Source: Antrihabitans stalagmiti (lineage in GTDB: Bacteria; Actinomycetota; Actinomycetes; Mycobacteriales; Mycobacteriaceae). Taken from it: a stretch of 64,000 bases of DNA. Where the stretch lies: the NCBI RefSeq assembly GCF_016482825.1, contig NZ_JAEMNV010000004.1:124001-188000 (forward strand), read 5' to 3'. Made by a program: the position numbers and the translations under genes. The notes beneath the pieces are model-generated. The model searched no databases and was not told the origin of the DNA. It worked only from the letters and a program-made list of their open reading frames with translations. How positions within the stretch are numbered: the stretch's first letter is position 1; every line of letters begins with the position of its first letter. Below, piece after piece: positions 17,068 through 23,691 of this stretch.

Positions 17068-18807
17068 GTGAGTCGGCTGAGCATTGTCGCGGTCGCTCTT
17101 GCCACCGCCGGATTGACCGCCGCGATGGTTGTCGCCGTCGATTGGGACGCATTCCGGGCGGTGAAGAATCCACTCGAACTGGTGATGTTCGTCCTGGTCG
17201 GGTGGGCGTTCGTCGGAGCGGGCATCGCGAGCTGGCGGATCCGCCCGCACGACAACACCGGCAAGCTGATGATCGGAGCCGGATTGCTCTGGCTCGCTCG
17301 CGGGTTCAACTTCTCCAGCCAGCCGATGCTGTTCACCATCGGCTGGGCGCTGATCGTCGCGTACTTCGCAGTGCTCATCCAGGTGGTGCTCGGCTTTCCG
17401 CTCGGTCGGCTGCGTAAATCGTGGGAACGGTGGTTCGTTGCCGGTTGCTACACCTATTACCTCGGCTCCGCGATGCTGGAGTTGGCGTTCGCCGATCCGG
17501 GTCGTGTCGCCGGTCAGACCTCTGGCGAACCGATCAACCTACTGTTGATACGCGACGACCCCGACGTATTCGATGCCTTGCAGCTTGTCTTCGGCCTCAT
17601 CGACGTGTCCATCGCGATCGTCATGATCGTCGTGCTGTACCGCCGCTGGCGGCGCGGGTCCGCGGCATACCGGTCCGCGTTCGCGCCGCTGTGGATCGTG
17701 GCGTTGATCGGAACGGCCGTCGTCTTGACGCTGTACGCGATCGACGCGACGTCGCCAGGTGCACTCGACGAAGCCGGTGCAATCATCGGGTATGCCGCGA
17801 CCATCCTGTCGCCGCTGTCGATCGCGTTGGGGCTGTGGCGCTTCCGAGTTGCGCGCGGTGCCGTCAGCGACGTGATGGTCGAGGTCGGTGCCGCGCCACT
17901 CGGCGAAGACTTCTCGAGGGCACTGCGACGCGCGGTCCGTGATCCGAGCTTGGTGCTGTGGTCCTGGTCGGCCGATCGGCGTTGTTACGTCGATGCGGAG
18001 GGCCTCGGGCATCGACTGCCCGACGACGACGGTCCGCGAGCGGCGACGGTCCTCGAACGCGACGGGGTGCCCGTCGGTGCTCTCGTCTACGACCAGTCAC
18101 TTCGTGATCAGCCGCAACTGATCGCAGCGGTCCGCAGCGCCGCAACCGTTGCGCTGGACAATCATCGGCTGCAAGCCGAACTCGAGGCGCAGCTCGAGGA
18201 GGTCCGGCAATCCCGCGGTCGGATCGTCGCTGCCGGTGACCAGCAACGCCGCAGGCTCGAACGCGATCTACACGACGGTGCCCAGCAGCGGCTTGTCGCC
18301 GCGTCGATCCTGCTGCGCCGCGCACAACGGTCGCAGCACGACCCACAGATGCGCGACCTGCTCGTTCAGGGTGCGGCAGAACTGGATTCGGCGTTGAAGG
18401 AGCTGCGTGATCTCGCCCGCGGTGTCTATCCGCCGGTGCTGCAGGAGCGTGGGCTCGGAGCCGCGCTGGACGGACTCGCCGAGCGGTCACCGCTGCCGCT
18501 GGAGATAGTCGACGACCTGGCCGAGCGCCCAGCGGCGGCCGTCGAACTCGCCGCCTACTTCATCGCGGCCGAAGCGGTGACGAACGCGATCAAACACAGC
18601 GCGGCCACCCACGTCGAGATCGCGATGAGCGCTGCGAACGGCGAACTGAAGCTCGTTGTCGCCGACGACGGCTGTGGCGGCGCGACATTCGGCCCGGGTG
18701 GCGGTTTGAGTGGACTGCTCGATCGCGCCTCGGCGCTCGGCGGGCGGCTGGCGGTGCTCAGCCCCGAGGGTGGCGGAACGAAAGTGACGGTCCACCTGCC
18801 GCTCTAG
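17068..18807 (+). CDS. NarL-family membrane sensor histidine kinase
   Basis: A 579-aa sensor kinase. The N-terminal ~270 residues hold about six to seven TM helices with no recognisable extracellular domain. A GAF-like segment follows (about 290-370), then a coiled region, then the HisKA_3 box ERDLHDGAQQRL (phospho-acceptor His about 402). The HATPase domain has EAVTNAIKHS (N box), VADDGCGG (G1) and GGLSGLLDRASALGG (G2). GTG 17068 has AGGAGG 7 nt upstream. Its stop is 77 nt before the ATG of the kinase/receiver fusion, which carries a NarL-type receiver and output domain and is the obvious partner. Confidence 0.9.
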   Translation: MSRLSIVAVALATAGLTAAMVVAVDWDAFRAVKNPLELVMFVLVGWAFVGAGIASWRIRPHDNTGKLMIGAGLLWLARGFNFSSQPMLFTIGWALIVAYFAVLIQVVLGFPLGRLRKSWERWFVAGCYTYYLGSAMLELAFADPGRVAGQTSGEPINLLLIRDDPDVFDALQLVFGLIDVSIAIVMIVVLYRRWRRGSAAYRSAFAPLWIVALIGTAVVLTLYAIDATSPGALDEAGAIIGYAATILSPLSIALGLWRFRVARGAVSDVMVEVGAAPLGEDFSRALRRAVRDPSLVLWSWSADRRCYVDAEGLGHRLPDDDGPRAATVLERDGVPVGALVYDQSLRDQPQLIAAVRSAATVALDNHRLQAELEAQLEEVRQSRGRIVAAGDQQRRRLERDLHDGAQQRLVAASILLRRAQRSQHDPQMRDLLVQGAAELDSALKELRDLARGVYPPVLQERGLGAALDGLAERSPLPLEIVDDLAERPAAAVELAAYFIAAEAVTNAIKHSAATHVEIAMSAANGELKLVVADDGCGGATFGPGGGLSGLLDRASALGGRLAVLSPEGGGTKVTVHLPL

Positions 18808-18884
18808 TGCGGGCTGGGGTTGAATGGGTGTCTCGGGCTTTCTCGGGGGCTGATAGCCAGGACGCCAGCGAAACAGGTGGAGAC

Positions 18885-20516
18885 ATGGGTGGATACGACC
18901 TCTCACCGGGTGCCGTGTTCGCCGGCTACACGATCGAAAACGGCATCGGTGTCGGCGGAATGGGATCGGTCTACGTCGCGCGCCATCCGAACCTGCCGCG
19001 CCGCGTCGCATTGAAGTTGCTGCACAAGAATCTGACGTCGGACGACTACGTCCGTGCGCGGTTCGAATTCGAAGCCGACCACGCCGCCAGGCTCGAACAT
19101 CCCAACATCGTCGCAGTCTACGACCGCGGCAGGCACCGCAATCAGTTGTGGATCTCGATGCAGTACGTCGCGGGAACCGATGTCGCACAATTGGTTCGGG
19201 ATCAAGTGCTGCCGCCGGATCGGGCGTTGCACATCGCCTACGAGGTCGCCCGCGGACTCGACTACGCCCACAGCGCCGGAGTCTTTCACCGTGACGTGAA
19301 GCCCGCCAACATCCTGCTTGCCGATGCGCCGTACCCGGGCGAGTCCGAGCGAGTGTTGTTGACCGACTTCGGTATTGCTAAGGCACTCGACGACACCGTG
19401 CACCTCACCGAGACCGGGATGTTGGTCGCGACACTGCGATACGCAGCGCCGGAGCAGATCGACGGTGCCGAGGTCGATCATCGGACCGACCAATACTCGT
19501 TGGCGTGCACACTGTTTCATCTGGTGACGGGCGCACCGCCCTATCCGGGACCAAACCCGTCGGCAATCATGAACGGACACTTGAACGCTCCGGTGCCGCG
19601 GGCGAGTGCTTTCCGACCTGGGCTGCCCGCAGCGTTCGATCAGGTGCTTGCCAAAGGTTTGGCCAAGAAGCGGGCCGACCGCTACGACTCGTGTGTGGAC
19701 ATGGTCGACGCGGCGAGGGCGGCGTTGGCTGCTGCCGAGCCGGATCAGACCGTGCCACATAGGGTCCCGCGCACATTCGACTTGGACGCCACGGACCCCG
19801 ACGTCACCGCATTCGCCCCGAACTCACAGGCGTTGCGAGTGGTGCTGACCGACGATTCGGTGTTGCTTCGCGAAGGAATCGCTCGGCTGCTGCAAGACGA
19901 GGGCATCGATGTGGTCGGGCAAGCGGGCGATGCGACCGCTCTGCTCGAACTGGTGGCCGAACACCGTCCCGATGTTGCCGTCGTCGACATTCGGATGCCA
20001 CCGACGCACACTGTCGAAGGTATCGAGGCGGCGATCACGATCCGTCGTGACTATCCGGACACCGGGGTGCTGTTGCTGTCTCAGTACGTCGAGACAGAGA
20101 ACGTGATGAACCTGCTCGACGGGGGAGCGGGCAGTCTCGGCTACCTGCTCAAGGACCGTGTTGCCGATGTCGACGAGTTCGTCGACGCCCTCAACCGCGT
20201 CGCTGACGGCGGGTCCGCTATCGATCCGGATCTGGTCGGCAGGCTCGTTTCCCGACCGCACCGGGGGCATCGACCGCTCGACGAACTGTCGGCCCGCGAG
20301 CGAGAAGTGTTGCAGCTTATGGCCGAAGGTCGTTCCAACAAGGCGATCAGTGCGTCGTTGTTTCTCGGCGAGCGGACCGTGGAAGCCCATGTTCGGAGCA
20401 TCTTCGTCAAACTCGAACTTGCTCCCGAACCGGAGGATCACCGGCGGGTCCTTGCCGTGCTGACACATCTGCGGGCAGCGCCACCACCGGTCAGTCGTCC
20501 CCACCCGGATCTGTGA
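18885..20516 (+). CDS. Ser/Thr protein kinase fused to a NarL-type response regulator
   Basis: A 543-aa soluble protein with three parts. Residues ~10-275 are a eukaryotic-like Ser/Thr kinase with all key motifs: GIGVGGMGSVYVA, VALKLL (Lys), HRDVKPANILL (Asp about 137), LTDFGIAK and AAPEQ. Residues ~320-440 are a receiver domain with LTDDS, VVDIRMPP (phospho-Asp about 368) and YLLKD (Lys). Residues ~465-525 are a LuxR HTH (LSAREREVLQLMAEGRSNKA). No TM segment or PASTA domain is present. ATG 18885 follows GGTGG by 4 nt; an in-frame GTG at 18807 overlaps the preceding kinase stop. It may integrate Ser/Thr phosphorylation with the phosphorelay from the upstream histidine kinase. Confidence 0.9.
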   Translation: MGGYDLSPGAVFAGYTIENGIGVGGMGSVYVARHPNLPRRVALKLLHKNLTSDDYVRARFEFEADHAARLEHPNIVAVYDRGRHRNQLWISMQYVAGTDVAQLVRDQVLPPDRALHIAYEVARGLDYAHSAGVFHRDVKPANILLADAPYPGESERVLLTDFGIAKALDDTVHLTETGMLVATLRYAAPEQIDGAEVDHRTDQYSLACTLFHLVTGAPPYPGPNPSAIMNGHLNAPVPRASAFRPGLPAAFDQVLAKGLAKKRADRYDSCVDMVDAARAALAAAEPDQTVPHRVPRTFDLDATDPDVTAFAPNSQALRVVLTDDSVLLREGIARLLQDEGIDVVGQAGDATALLELVAEHRPDVAVVDIRMPPTHTVEGIEAAITIRRDYPDTGVLLLSQYVETENVMNLLDGGAGSLGYLLKDRVADVDEFVDALNRVADGGSAIDPDLVGRLVSRPHRGHRPLDELSAREREVLQLMAEGRSNKAISASLFLGERTVEAHVRSIFVKLELAPEPEDHRRVLAVLTHLRAAPPPVSRPHPDL

Positions 20517-21465
20517 CACCTTCGGTTTCGTCGCGTTCGGCCCACTCCAACAGCCGTGAAATGTCGAAAACCGCGTCGTCCATTCCGGCGTGGAGGTCGC
20601 CGAGTTCGGCGAAACGTGCTGGGACGGTTTGCATCGTGAAGTCCTGCGGGTCGGCGTCGTCGATCTCGTCCCACGCGATCGGCGTCGAGACAGTTCCGCG
20701 TGGATTGCCTCGCACGGAGTAGGCGCTGGCGATCGTATGATCGCGCGCGTTCTGGTTGTAATCGACGAACAATGCGGCGGGGTCGCGATCTTTGCGCCAC
20801 CACGTCGTCGTCACCTCGGACGGTGCCCGGCGCTCGACTTCACGCGCGAACGCGAGCGCCGCCCGGCGGACGTCTTTGAAGCCGTAGTCGGGAGCGATGC
20901 GGACATAGATGTGTAAACCCTTGCCGCCGCTGGTCTTCGGCCAGCCGATCGCTCCGAGGTCGTCGAGCACCTCGTGTGCGACGTGCGCAACACGACGCAC
21001 GCGGTCGAAACTGCAGTCCGGCATCGGATCGAGATCGATGCGCCACTCGTCGGGGAATTCGACGGCTGCACTGTGTGTGTTCCACGGATGAAATTCCACG
21101 GTCGACATCTGGACCGCCCAGATCACGTGCGCCAACTCGGTCACACACAGCTCGTCGGCGTTGCGGTTGTAGCGAGGGAAGTGCACCCGAACCGTGTTCA
21201 ACCAGGGCGGAGCCCCGTTCGGTACGCGTTTCTGGTGCACTTTCTCGCCGCTCAAGCCTGTCGGAAAGCGATGCAGCATGCACGGCCGCTCGTAGAGCGC
21301 ATTGACGATGCCGTCGCCGACCGATAGGTAGTACTCGACGAGATCGAGTTTGGTGGCACCGGTCTCCGGAAAATAGATGCGATCCGGATTGCTGATCCGC
21401 ACCACCTTGTCGTCGATCTCGAGCTCGACGGCAGGAGATTTCGACTTACCGGAACTGGTGGCCAT
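20491..21465 (-). CDS. LigD-type primase-polymerase domain protein (stand-alone PolDom)
   Basis: A 324-aa protein matching the polymerase/primase domain of bacterial LigD (AEP superfamily), which fills in and extends ends during non-homologous end joining. Visible features: ISNPDRIYFPETGATKLDLV at the N-terminus, WRIDLDPMP with the metal-binding D-x-D, TSGGKGLHIYV, and FVDYNQNARDHTIASAYSVR. Neither ligase nor nuclease domain is present and no ku gene is in the window, so it resembles the separate PolD proteins of mycobacteria. ATG 21465 was chosen because the upstream open frame lacks family character. It overlaps the 3' end of the kinase/receiver fusion by 26 bp, convergently. Confidence 0.88.
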   Translation of the reverse strand: MATSSGKSKSPAVELEIDDKVVRISNPDRIYFPETGATKLDLVEYYLSVGDGIVNALYERPCMLHRFPTGLSGEKVHQKRVPNGAPPWLNTVRVHFPRYNRNADELCVTELAHVIWAVQMSTVEFHPWNTHSAAVEFPDEWRIDLDPMPDCSFDRVRRVAHVAHEVLDDLGAIGWPKTSGGKGLHIYVRIAPDYGFKDVRRAALAFAREVERRAPSEVTTTWWRKDRDPAALFVDYNQNARDHTIASAYSVRGNPRGTVSTPIAWDEIDDADPQDFTMQTVPARFAELGDLHAGMDDAVFDISRLLEWAERDETEGVTDPGGDD

Positions 21466-21493
21466 ACCTGCCAAGATAGCTGTCCGGCGCGGA

Positions 21494-21766
21494 TCAGTCG
21501 GCGGTTGTCGGATCGATGACGGTCCCGATGCGGCTGATCCTGTTCGCCGGAAAGCCGGACAGTTCAGCATGTTCGCGCACGGCGTCCTCGTCGTCGGCGA
21601 CGTAGACACAGTAGATCTTGTCGTCGGTCACGTAACTCTGCTGCCACTGTGCGCGGCCTTCCATCGTGGCCAACGCGGCGTTCGAGGTCTGGGCTGCGCC
21701 CTGCAGTTCTGCCTGCGTGAGATTGCCAACGCTTGGCATGTCGCGTTCGATTACGTACTTCGGCAT
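21494..21766 (-). CDS. DUF4242 (SCO4226-type nickel-binding family) protein
   Basis: A 90-aa protein that begins MPKYVIERDMPSVGNLT and ends GFPANRISRIGTVIDPTTAD, the pattern of the DUF4242 family. In Streptomyces a member (SCO4226) binds nickel; others are unstudied. The core WQQSYVTDDKIYCVYVADDE is well conserved. GAAGGAG lies 6-8 nt before ATG 21766. It lies downstream of the LuxR-TPR regulator on the same strand, 132 nt away. No enzyme activity can be assigned. Confidence 0.88.
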   Translation of the reverse strand: MPKYVIERDMPSVGNLTQAELQGAAQTSNAALATMEGRAQWQQSYVTDDKIYCVYVADDEDAVREHAELSGFPANRISRIGTVIDPTTAD

Positions 21767-21898: not shown

Positions 21899-23626
21899 TC
21901 AGCGGCGACGCGGGTCCACGATGCCGTTTTCGAACGCGTAAGCCGTTGCGGCGGAGCGGGATGTGACCCCGAGCTTGGTGAAGACGTTCGCGACGTGCCG
22001 GTGTACGGTCCGCTCACTGAGGAACAGCGCTGTCGCGATCTCACGGTTGCTGTTGCCTGCAGCGATGAGGCGCAGCACCTCGATTTCGCGGGTGCTCAGC
22101 CCTCCCGGCGCGGTCGATGCGCCCCGTAGTGCTGCAACCCTCTGGATGTCCGGGAGTGCGCCGAGCCGTTCGAAAACCGTTGCTGCTGCGTCGAGTTCGA
22201 GTGCGACGGCGTCGTCGTCACCCAACCCGCGGTAGGTTTCGGCCAGCAGAAGACGGGTCCGGGCCGTCTCGTACGGCGCTTCCAGTTGCTGCCACTGTCT
22301 GCAGGCCGTACGCAACACCGGAAGTGCCGTGACCGCCTTGCCTTCGGCGAGCAGCACCGCACCGCGCGCACGAGTGGCTGCTGCGGCGAGCCCGGAGCCG
22401 GAATGCGTCTGCGCGGCCTCGGTCAGCGCAGCCGATGCCCGCCTAGCGGTGTCGAGATCGCCAGCCGCAAAGGCGATTTCGAGCTGTGCGAGATGAAGTC
22501 GGCTCCGTGCGGATCGGCTCAGGTGCTCGTCGGCAAGCGCCGTACGGATCGAGGACGCGGCAGCCTCGGTGTTGCCTTGCGCCAGCCGAATCAGAGCGAG
22601 ACCGGGCTGGGGATCGGCACCGAGTTCGTGGGCGGCGCGCAGGGATTCCTCCGCGCCTGCCAGGTCGCCGCGTAACCGAAGGATCTCTGCGACTTCGTAA
22701 CGCGCGTCCGAGGCGACGCCGGAGTTGACGTTCACGGTGTCGGCGTGTGCGCGCAGCGCTTCCGTCATGGCGTCGTCCCAGCTGCCGTGCAACTGCAGTA
22801 CCTGAGCGCGATGGACGCGGCAGATGCCGGGGTAGAGGTTCGCGTCGGGCAGTGGGCTGCACCATTGCGTCGCGGATTTCGTGACTTCGCTTGCCCGTCG
22901 AAGGTCGGTCAGTTCGTGACAGACCGACATCACGTGGCAGTAGATCGCCCCCGACCAGAACGGGGTGACCTCTCCCGTCGACACCATCAACATCGCCTCG
23001 TCGAGTAACGCGAGGCCTTCGTCGAGCTGTCCGAGAGCGACAAGCGTTTTGCCTTCGCAGAGAACACCGACCGCGACGAGATCGGTGTTTGCAAGGGTCC
23101 GGCCGAGCGTATGCATCCGCGTCGCCGACGCCATCGCCGTGTCGGTGTCTCCGCGCCCGAGCGCCTGAGCCGTTTCGAGGTAGAGAGGGAAGCCGTGGGC
23201 GGCACATTCGGGGATCTCGTCGAGCAGGTGGTAGCAGCGGCGCATCCAGCCGGCGCCCTTCGACACATCTCCACGCAGGCCCGTGTGCAGGCCCAGGTAG
23301 AAGGCCGCCATCGCCGCATCGGCCGTCTGCCCGACGTCGACGAAAATGCGATGAGCGCGAGTGAACGCATCGAGTGATTCGTCGATCTTGCCGAGCCACC
23401 ACGCGGCCTCGGCCAACGCAACGAGGTCCGCGCCGGACAGTTCCCCATTGGTTTTGCCCGCAACGAACCAGTCGTACGTCGCCTGCCAGTCGCCGACGGC
23501 ATGCACATCGAGCGGTTTGTCGACCAACGCCCGATCCGGAGGGGTTTGGTCGACGATCTCCACCATCGTCCCAGGGTAATCCCGCAAAACAACTCGCTCT
23601 ACATTGTCGAGCCGATGTGTCAGCAT
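21899..23626 (-). CDS. LuxR-family regulator with TPR-like helical repeats
   Basis: A protein of about 575 aa. Most of the length is alpha-helical repeat sequence (for example LAEAAWWLGKIDESLDAFTR), as in TPR/MalT-type sensor regions. The C-terminus is a LuxR/GerE HTH: LSTREIEVLRLIAAGNSN, then ERTVHRHVANVFTKLGV (about 510-565). No P-loop ATPase motif is visible, so it is not a full LAL regulator. The start is uncertain: ATG 23626 is used, with GTG 23650 upstream and an ATG 20 codons downstream possible. Divergent from the short ORF/HNH genes; the DUF4242 gene is the nearest downstream candidate target. Confidence 0.82.
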   Translation of the reverse strand: MLTHRLDNVERVVLRDYPGTMVEIVDQTPPDRALVDKPLDVHAVGDWQATYDWFVAGKTNGELSGADLVALAEAAWWLGKIDESLDAFTRAHRIFVDVGQTADAAMAAFYLGLHTGLRGDVSKGAGWMRRCYHLLDEIPECAAHGFPLYLETAQALGRGDTDTAMASATRMHTLGRTLANTDLVAVGVLCEGKTLVALGQLDEGLALLDEAMLMVSTGEVTPFWSGAIYCHVMSVCHELTDLRRASEVTKSATQWCSPLPDANLYPGICRVHRAQVLQLHGSWDDAMTEALRAHADTVNVNSGVASDARYEVAEILRLRGDLAGAEESLRAAHELGADPQPGLALIRLAQGNTEAAASSIRTALADEHLSRSARSRLHLAQLEIAFAAGDLDTARRASAALTEAAQTHSGSGLAAAATRARGAVLLAEGKAVTALPVLRTACRQWQQLEAPYETARTRLLLAETYRGLGDDDAVALELDAAATVFERLGALPDIQRVAALRGASTAPGGLSTREIEVLRLIAAGNSNREIATALFLSERTVHRHVANVFTKLGVTSRSAATAYAFENGIVDPRRR

Positions 23627-23691
23627 TGTCTTCGATATACGTTGCCGCACGGGTAATGGTTCACGCGAGGAAAGAGCAGAAGGGAGTAGCA

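What the first reader, a model, noticed from the sequence alone, without database searches (positions are those of the whole stretch)
18885..20516. Ser/Thr protein kinase fused to a complete response regulator next to its histidine kinase
One 543-aa protein holds an intact eukaryotic-like kinase, a receiver with a phosphorylatable Asp, and a LuxR DNA-binding domain, and it follows a NarL-type sensor kinase gene. Two phosphorylation chemistries therefore meet on one transcription factor. Kinase motifs (VALKLL, HRDVKP, DFG) and receiver Asp are all present, so neither part looks degenerate. A fusion of this kind is unusual in my knowledge.
Basis: partly seen in the sequence, partly recalled or inferred. 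Interest (0 to 1): 0.85.

Follow-up and report, generated by a model that had tools for sequence, protein, structure and literature searches.

The report
Ser/Thr kinase fused to response regulator
An actinobacterium and some of its relatives carry a gene regulator whose front half is a eukaryotic-type protein kinase and whose back half is a classic two-component response regulator, so two signalling systems that are normally separate are joined in one protein and their crosstalk can be tested directly.

Summary
Window 18885-20516 (+) is one 543-aa open frame with Pkinase, Response_reg and GerE domains, all over Pfam cut-offs, behind a HisKA_3 sensor kinase (HK) gene (17068-18807). It is no frameshift or misassembly: full-length relatives (61-81% identical) occur in 8 other genomes of 201 searched in the family, each with the orthologous HK nearby. 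Catalytic residues are conserved and all three domains are under purifying selection.

Outside the family, 11 of 14 loci with HK homologues have an adjacent stand-alone regulator and no kinase, so the kinase domain is most simply a later addition. Of 12 near unfused kinases checked, 7 are PknD-like (kinase plus NHL propeller). Fusions of other kinases and regulators occur in G025 and on a Rhodococcus koreensis and a Chloroflexota plasmid, each beside an HK or HATPase gene: the join arose repeatedly.

Most likely mechanism (inferred): HK phosphorylation of Asp368 dimerises the protein on DNA, bringing two kinase domains together, which then modify the dimer. No biochemistry exists. Ser/Thr-kinase crosstalk to NarL-type regulators in trans is known; I found no description of a fused form in ten paper searches. 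New variant of a known kind.

The parts
17068..18807 (+). NarL-type sensor histidine kinase gene, 579 aa, about six N-terminal hydrophobic segments, HisKA_3 + HATPase_c; H-box His at codon 402 (18271-18273)
   Evidence: Pfam over cut-off; motifs; hydropathy; near-full-length orthologs (51% identity or more) in the same 9 of 201 family genomes as the fused protein
18885..20516 (+). Fused gene: Ser/Thr kinase - linker - receiver - LuxR/GerE HTH, 543 aa (alternative GTG start at 18807)
   Evidence: open frame; Pfam; orthologs 61-81% identical over full length
18897..19748 (+). Kinase domain, residues 5-288; K44 19014-19016, D137 19293-19295, DFG 19365-19373, activation-loop T175/T177 19407-19415
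   Evidence: purifying selection, dN/dS 0.08-0.21 in five pairs
19749..19832 (+). Variable linker, residues 289-316, beginning with a T-V-P motif (T289); a T-[V/L/M]-P motif occurs in 7 of 9 ortholog linkers
   Evidence: 14 of 132 unfused kinases; 2000 rounds of shuffled linkers, mean 0.53 of 9, largest 4 of 9; noticed post hoc
19833..20204 (+). Receiver domain, residues 317-440; phospho-acceptor Asp368 at 19986-19988
   Evidence: Pfam 62 bits; D324, D368, S399, K423 identical in 10 of 10, D323 in 9 of 10
20283..20420 (+). GerE/LuxR DNA-binding HTH, residues 467-512; T498 aligns with the Thr of VraR's IKTVKTH stretch
   Evidence: Pfam 57.5 bits; alignment to VraR and DevR
18819..18825 (+). GTTGAAT, promoter-like element upstream of the fused gene; G003 has GTTCAAT, and the six orthologs of other genera have GGTTYC-N18-GTTSAAT
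   Evidence: function untested; absent upstream of the G002 gene; the pattern GGGTTSAATNG is expected 0.22 times per window by chance

Best explanation
A two-component pair in which the response regulator carries its own Ser/Thr kinase. The membrane HK (17068-18807) phosphorylates Asp368 of the receiver. Like other NarL-type regulators the protein then dimerises and binds DNA through its HTH. Because kinases of this group are switched on by dimerisation, the same step brings two N-terminal kinase domains together; they trans-phosphorylate the activation loop (T175/T177), probably the T-[VLM]-P site in the linker, and possibly the regulator half, which sets how strongly or how long the dimer holds DNA. 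In evolution a receptor-type kinase domain was put in front of the regulator of an existing HK-RR pair, without the kinase's membrane sensor. Shown: one protein, intact catalytic residues, purifying selection on all three domains, HK linkage, stand-alone RR beside HK homologues of other families, repeated origin. Inferred: dimerisation coupling, cis substrates, direction of control, order of events.
For: Open fused frame and domains. Orthologs in 9 of 201 family genomes with the HK beside the gene in 9 of 9. Catalytic residues invariant; dN/dS in five pairs: kinase 0.08-0.21, receiver 0.04-0.16, HTH 0.01-0.08. Of 14 HK-homologue loci outside the family, 11 have a directly adjacent stand-alone RR, none a kinase match in the fetched flanks of up to about 1.5 kb. 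Of 12 near unfused kinases given to Pfam, 7 carry NHL repeats; the two checked for hydrophobic segments (L036, L013) have them, five fused proteins checked have none, so the regulator half sits where the receptor's sensor was. Repeated fusions beside HK or HATPase genes: G025, Chlorohelix and R. koreensis plasmids. Precedents: PknH and PknD phosphorylate DosR in trans, and dimerisation is required for STPK activation (PMC12919924; abstract, introduction and discussion read); DNA binding activates the kinase YabT (PMC6333020, passages read).
Against: No biochemical data. The Thr pair phosphorylated in DosR is not conserved: the position that aligns with DosR T205 (T527, weakly aligned end) is Thr in only 5 of 10 fused proteins, and T498 is in a common LuxR-HTH motif, so no diagnostic cis-site stands out. 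In the three window-genus pairs kinase dN/dS is about 2.6-11 times that of receiver or HTH, so the kinase may have looser or other constraints. YabT's authors favour a face-to-face rather than back-to-back dimer, so the geometry is uncertain. The structure model was confident only for the kinase domain (mean pLDDT 67.1, pTM 0.55) and says nothing on domain contacts. One of four window-genus genomes (G001) has neither the fusion nor the HK at the thresholds used, so the system is dispensable there.
Confidence: 0.4

Rival explanations
1. The kinase is a second, independent input: it senses its own cytoplasmic signal and phosphorylates the receiver, linker or HTH to tune or veto a regulator driven by the HK, as PknH/PknD do to DosR in trans. 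The HK does not control the kinase.
For: Trans phosphorylation of NarL-type regulators by such kinases is established (PMC12919924; VraR T106/T119/T175/T178 in PMC4601284, passages). HTH has the lowest dN/dS in four of five pairs and is close to the receiver in the other, so transcription looks like the main output.
Against: Pfam finds no further sensory domain in the protein; the membrane and sensor parts seen in related receptor kinases are absent.
Confidence: 0.28
2. The receiver and HTH are an addressing device: they carry an active kinase to promoters, where it phosphorylates other proteins (RNA polymerase, other regulators).
For: Kinase catalytic residues intact while known cis-sites are poorly conserved; YabT is a DNA-activated kinase with DNA-bound substrates such as RecA (PMC6333020, passages).
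Against: No substrate known; the HK linkage in all 9 family genomes argues for an ordinary signal output as well.
Confidence: 0.15
3. A regulator with a passenger kinase: the fusion mainly keeps two co-needed activities at equal amounts, with little cross-control.
For: Linker is variable in length (32-62 aa over the stretch aligned with residues 272-318) and fast-evolving.
Against: Fusions arose repeatedly from different kinase clades, each beside an HK or HATPase gene, which a neutral join would not favour.
Confidence: 0.12
4. Assembly error or frameshift that joins two genes.
For: None found for the window gene. The G025 fusion is seen in one genome only, while G194 has the regulator alone at the same locus.
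Against: Nine genomes in 3 genus codes hold the same architecture in one frame; purifying selection on both halves.
Confidence: 0.01

Closest known systems
NarL/FixJ-family response regulators (DosR/DevR, VraR, NarL)
   Same: Receiver with phospho-Asp pocket plus GerE HTH, gene beside a HisKA_3 sensor kinase; phmmer hits VraR 98 bits, DevR 85, NarL 71
   Different: Those chains are 208-225 aa, two domains; [quoted passage not shown]
PknD/PknE-type mycobacterial receptor kinases (kinase-TM-sensor)
   Same: Kinase domain: best solved relatives are 7naa (267 bits) and PknE 2h34 (222 bits); 7 of 12 near unfused kinases checked carry NHL repeats, as PknD does (that PknD has this layout is recalled)
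   Different: No hydrophobic TM segment, no propeller; receiver and HTH in their place
STPK-to-TCS crosstalk (PknH/PknD on DosR; Stk1 on VraR)
   Same: Same two signalling classes meeting on a NarL-type regulator
   Different: There in trans between separate proteins; here joined in one polypeptide
HstK of Anabaena (Ser/Thr kinase plus His kinase in one protein; seen only as a reference title in PMC2176072)
   Same: One polypeptide combines a Ser/Thr kinase and a two-component part
   Different: HstK joins the kinase to the sensor end (HK); here it is joined to the regulator end and the HK is a separate gene
PknK-like kinase-LuxR regulators (recalled)
   Same: Kinase plus DNA-binding HTH in one protein (recalled); four frames of 1,070-1,182 aa with kinase domains like that of the G025 fusion exist in this genome
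   Different: No receiver in that family (recalled); C-termini of those frames were not scanned here
YabT of B. subtilis (PMC6333020, passages)
   Same: Hanks-type kinase whose activity depends on DNA binding
   Different: YabT binds DNA through a disordered basic stretch next to a TM helix, not an HTH, and no receiver is described in the passages read

Membership tests
NarL/FixJ response regulators | Receiver with acidic pair, phospho-Asp, Ser/Thr and Lys | tested here: met
   D324, D368, S399, K423 in 10 of 10 and D323 in 9 of 10 fused proteins
NarL/FixJ response regulators | C-terminal GerE HTH | tested here: met
   PF00196 57.5 bits over cut-off 23.5
NarL/FixJ response regulators | HisKA_3 kinase gene beside it | tested here: met
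NarL/FixJ response regulators | Phosphotransfer from HK to Asp and phospho-dependent DNA binding | not testable with these tools
   needs biochemistry
Hanks-type Ser/Thr kinase | Gly loop, VAxK Lys, alpha-C Glu, HRDxKxxN, DFG, APE | tested here: met
   invariant residues in 10 of 10 fused proteins
PknD-type receptor kinase | TM helix and NHL propeller after the kinase | tested here: not met
   no hydrophobic segment, no NHL match
HstK-type Ser/Thr-His hybrid kinase | HK transmitter in the same polypeptide | tested here: not met
   HisKA_3/HATPase only in the separate gene 17068-18807
PknK/MalT-like kinase-LuxR regulator | Kinase, large ATPase/TPR middle, LuxR HTH, no receiver (recalled) | tested here: not met
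   543 aa; Pfam shows a receiver and no ATPase/TPR match

The most novel reading that the evidence does not exclude
A phospho-Asp to phospho-Ser/Thr converter: a class of response regulators whose enzymatic output is a eukaryotic-type protein kinase, switched on by HK-driven dimerisation on DNA, so that an ordinary two-component stimulus is broadcast as Ser/Thr phosphorylation. The class arose by repeated capture of different kinase domains in front of regulators that already had an HK partner.
Probability: 0.3. Interest if true: 0.82.

Novelty: new variant of a known kind. Interest (0 to 1): 0.6.

Why it matters
How bacterial Ser/Thr kinases are switched on is called a key outstanding question in a 2026 paper (PMC12919924, discussion read), which also reports that two studies disagree on whether Ser/Thr phosphorylation raises or lowers DosR DNA binding. 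A natural protein that holds kinase and NarL-type regulator in fixed 1:1 ratio, with its HK next door and with close relatives that lack the kinase (G194 beside G025, G546, the stand-alone regulators of G185 and G195), makes both questions testable with point mutants and domain comparisons. The repeated origin is evolutionary evidence that direct kinase-regulator coupling is useful.

Tried and rejected
Frameshift or misassembly: rejected. Single origin of the nine family fusions: kinase domains of the window genus (3) and of the other two genera (6) do not form one clade (AU p = 0.003). But a larger group that adds the unfused kinases L036, L037 and L041 is not rejected (p = 0.11; that group was named after the tree was seen), and L036 and L037 share a GTTSAAT element upstream; so one fusion followed by loss, or a kinase swap, remains possible, though these three carry NHL repeats and would have had to regain a sensor. 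On regulator domains one clade of the nine is not rejected (p = 0.305). Rows dropped: the domain sets kept 147 domain sequences from 180 frames with a kinase match and 49 from 71 with a regulator match (at least 85% of the domain, duplicates out); the kinase test tree used 39 rows, picked as near the fused ones; the second regulator tree left out 7 of 49 rows, all distant or long-branched, the first used all 49; the wide kinase tree of 79 rows was a quick one. Degenerate kinase: rejected for the window gene; the R. koreensis plasmid kinase reads PRDVTPSN where HRDxKPxN is usual and may be impaired. Conserved cis-phosphosites: DosR- and VraR-type sites checked, none diagnostic. Regulator binding site: the HK upstream region of three genomes was aligned, no motif called. 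L142, L152 and L167 looked like fusions in the scan but are separate neighbouring genes. The structure model was poor outside the kinase. One search listed only matches at E <= 1e-90, and the order and class junction searches favour orthologs; independent fusions of diverged parts would be missed, so the total number of such fusions is unknown. Chloroflexota was not surveyed.

Paper notes: ten searches were answered; I saw no paper describing this architecture in their listings. I opened six papers: PMC12919924 (abstract, introduction, discussion), and passages of PMC6333020, PMC2176072, PMC4601284, PMC1796606 (the three Pfam names stand in separate rows of one table) and PMC8007912. The library lacks most subscription journals and the terms were narrow.

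Full report
1. The observation. Window 18885-20516 (+) translates to 543 aa without a stop. Pfam finds Pkinase (15-235, 149.8 bits), Response_reg (319-424, 62.0) and GerE (467-512, 57.5), all above their gathering scores; the gene before it, 17068-18807, has HisKA_3 and HATPase_c, an H-box and an N-box-like motif and six hydrophobic segments. A GTG start at 18807 would add 26 aa and overlap the HK stop by one base; orthologs can begin near the ATG. NCBIfam's best hits are below their cut-offs: kinase models for the front, the MadR and MctR regulator models for the back.

2. It is real. A whole-protein search of 201 genomes of the family (own included; matches listed to E <= 1e-90) shows ten rows that span kinase and regulator: own, G002 and G003 (81%), G185, G195, G029, G155, G049, G143 (63-68%) and, at 42%, G025. 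Each is a single frame; flagged stops are terminal. In the ten-row alignment the kinase residues K44, E63, H135-R136-D137, K139, N142, D161-F162-G163, E190 and the receiver residues D324, D368, S399, K423 are identical in all, D323 in 9 of 10, activation-loop T175 in 10 of 10 and T177 in 9 of 10. Counting estimates of dN/dS in five pairs are 0.08-0.21 for the kinase, 0.04-0.16 for the receiver, 0.01-0.08 for the HTH and 0.32-1.1 for the linker in the four pairs where synonymous sites are not saturated. Both halves are kept by selection. Three of the four window-genus genomes have the fusion; G001 has not.

3. Partner and neighbours. The HK searched in the same number of family genomes gives near-full-length matches of 51% identity or more in exactly the nine genomes with the orthologous fusion (12 places), plus matches to the sensor half only in G025 and G144 and a 35% match in G061. 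It lies beside the fused gene in 9 of 9: upstream on the same strand in 7 (two tandem HKs in G003; about 1.7 kb away in G143), divergent in G185 and G195, where the HK is followed by its own stand-alone regulator (72 and 67% identical to the window's fused one). Gene order around the locus is otherwise conserved with G002 and G003 (EmbC-like arabinosyltransferase before); the loci of the orthologs in other genera (L057-L062) share no further genes with the window in that comparison.

4. Ancestry. In 394 genomes of the class the HK at E <= 1e-80 has 16 places in 15 genomes; 14 places lie outside the family. Of these 14, 11 have a directly adjacent stand-alone regulator, two a regulator match only at the locus edge, one none; none shows a kinase match in the fetched flanks of up to about 1.5 kb. 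In G546 the pair is 47% (HK) and 69% (RR) identical, with overlapping genes; a separate kinase gene lies about 4 kb away. The regulator tree puts the nine fused, the two stand-alone of G185/G195 and that of G546 in one 12-row clade (100/99); the tree is drawn with a midpoint root. The simplest reading is that the two-domain regulator is older and the kinase was added.

5. Where the kinase came from. Of 12 near unfused kinases given to Pfam, 7 carry NHL repeats (L036, L013, L035, L037, L038, L015, L041); the other 5 carry other or no further named domains. Two (L036, L013) were checked for hydrophobic segments and have them; five fused proteins checked (window, G029, G025 and the two plasmid ones) have none. 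So a receptor kinase's membrane and sensor part seems to have been replaced by receiver plus HTH. In the kinase tree (39 rows) the fused kinases form two clades (window genus 100/99; the other six 100/98); one clade of nine is rejected (AU p = 0.003). A clade that also takes in L036, L037 and L041 is not (p = 0.11), so two captures, a domain swap, or one capture with later reversal remain open; I favour two captures or a swap.

6. Independent fusions. G025's fusion has a kinase of another clade (nearest to long kinases of roughly 1,050-1,200 aa) and a regulator of another clade. In G194, same genus code, the same locus (HK 86%, three neighbour genes 83-94%) has the regulator alone, 93% identical over 220 residues: a recent fusion, seen in one genome. 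In 72,556 plasmid records, 215 match at E <= 1e-30 and two hold one place over at least 80% of the query: Candidatus Chlorohelix (Chloroflexota), with a 1,373-aa HisKA_3 kinase gene 45 bp upstream, and Rhodococcus koreensis, with an HATPase_c gene 44 bp downstream, for which no HisKA_3 match was found, and whose own kinase motif is altered. Order- and class-level junction searches (397 and 394 genomes, partly the same genomes) show spanning matches only in the family, 4 and 2 rows (the order list was cut); they would miss diverged fusions.

7. Mechanism. Shown: architecture, integrity, selection, linkage. Inferred from trees and neighbours: history. From established knowledge: HisKA_3 kinases phosphorylate NarL-type receivers; such regulators act as dimers; STPKs need dimerisation for activation (PMC12919924, discussion; dimer types compared in PMC6333020, passages). 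Inferred: Asp368 phosphorylation and DNA binding bring the kinases together. Precedents: PknH and PknD phosphorylate DosR, with opposite effects of PknH reported by two studies (the earlier result also in PMC4601284); Stk1 phosphorylates VraR, though one study saw none; DNA activates YabT. Known cis-sites are not clearly conserved: the position aligned with DosR T205 is Thr in 5 of 10, and the Thr of VraR's IKTVKTH stretch corresponds to T498 in a common LuxR motif (residue matching is my reading of the printed alignments). A T-[VLM]-P motif near the start of the linker occurs in 7 of 9 orthologs, 14 of 132 unfused kinases and 0.53 of 9 on average in shuffled linkers; it was noticed after looking and some rows are near-duplicates, so it is a lead.

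8. Comparison and novelty. It works like STPK-TCS crosstalk but in one chain; it is not a PknD (no TM, no propeller), not an HstK (HK separate), not a PknK-type regulator (receiver present). I found no description in ten paper searches (mostly listings seen); the two plasmid records call such proteins 'protein kinase', so sequences exist in public records under a plain name. I file it as a new variant of a known kind. Interest 0.6: a specialist would be fairly surprised by the repeated origin beside HK genes, and it makes an open question testable, but function is unproven.

Noticed in passing
window 18819-18825; G185/G195/G029/G155/G049/G143 fused genes: GGTTYC-N18-GTTSAAT, a promoter-like pair, lies upstream of 6 of 6 fused genes outside the window genus; GTTSAAT alone upstream of the window and G003 genes and of unfused kinases L036 and L037 (11 of 147 kinase genes checked have GTTSAAT within 260 nt, one of them, L150, far upstream; about 1.6 expected by frequency).
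   Followed up: partly
L142 5977-8468, L152 5896-8432, L167 4474-8398: Nocardia and Nonomuraea loci with a NarL-type regulator gene directly beside a Ser/Thr kinase gene, unfused: possible pre-fusion stages.
   Followed up: partly
L193 7266-8858, L194 7465-8613: G025 and G144 have the sensor half of this HK (about 48-50% identical) in a frame that ends before the transmitter; in G025 a second frame with a weak match to the transmitter follows.
   Followed up: no
L191 8723-10867, L192 8373-10364: G195 and G185 hold a second copy of the HK elsewhere with no matching regulator in the fetched stretch.
   Followed up: no
L064 5792-7809 (own genome, contig 43): A paralogous ordinary HK-RR pair whose regulator is 56% identical to the fused one.
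   Followed up: partly
window 20491-21609 and 21899-23650: A LigD primase-polymerase domain frame converges on the fused gene and overlaps its 3' end by 26 bases; next to it a TPR-LuxR regulator.
   Followed up: no
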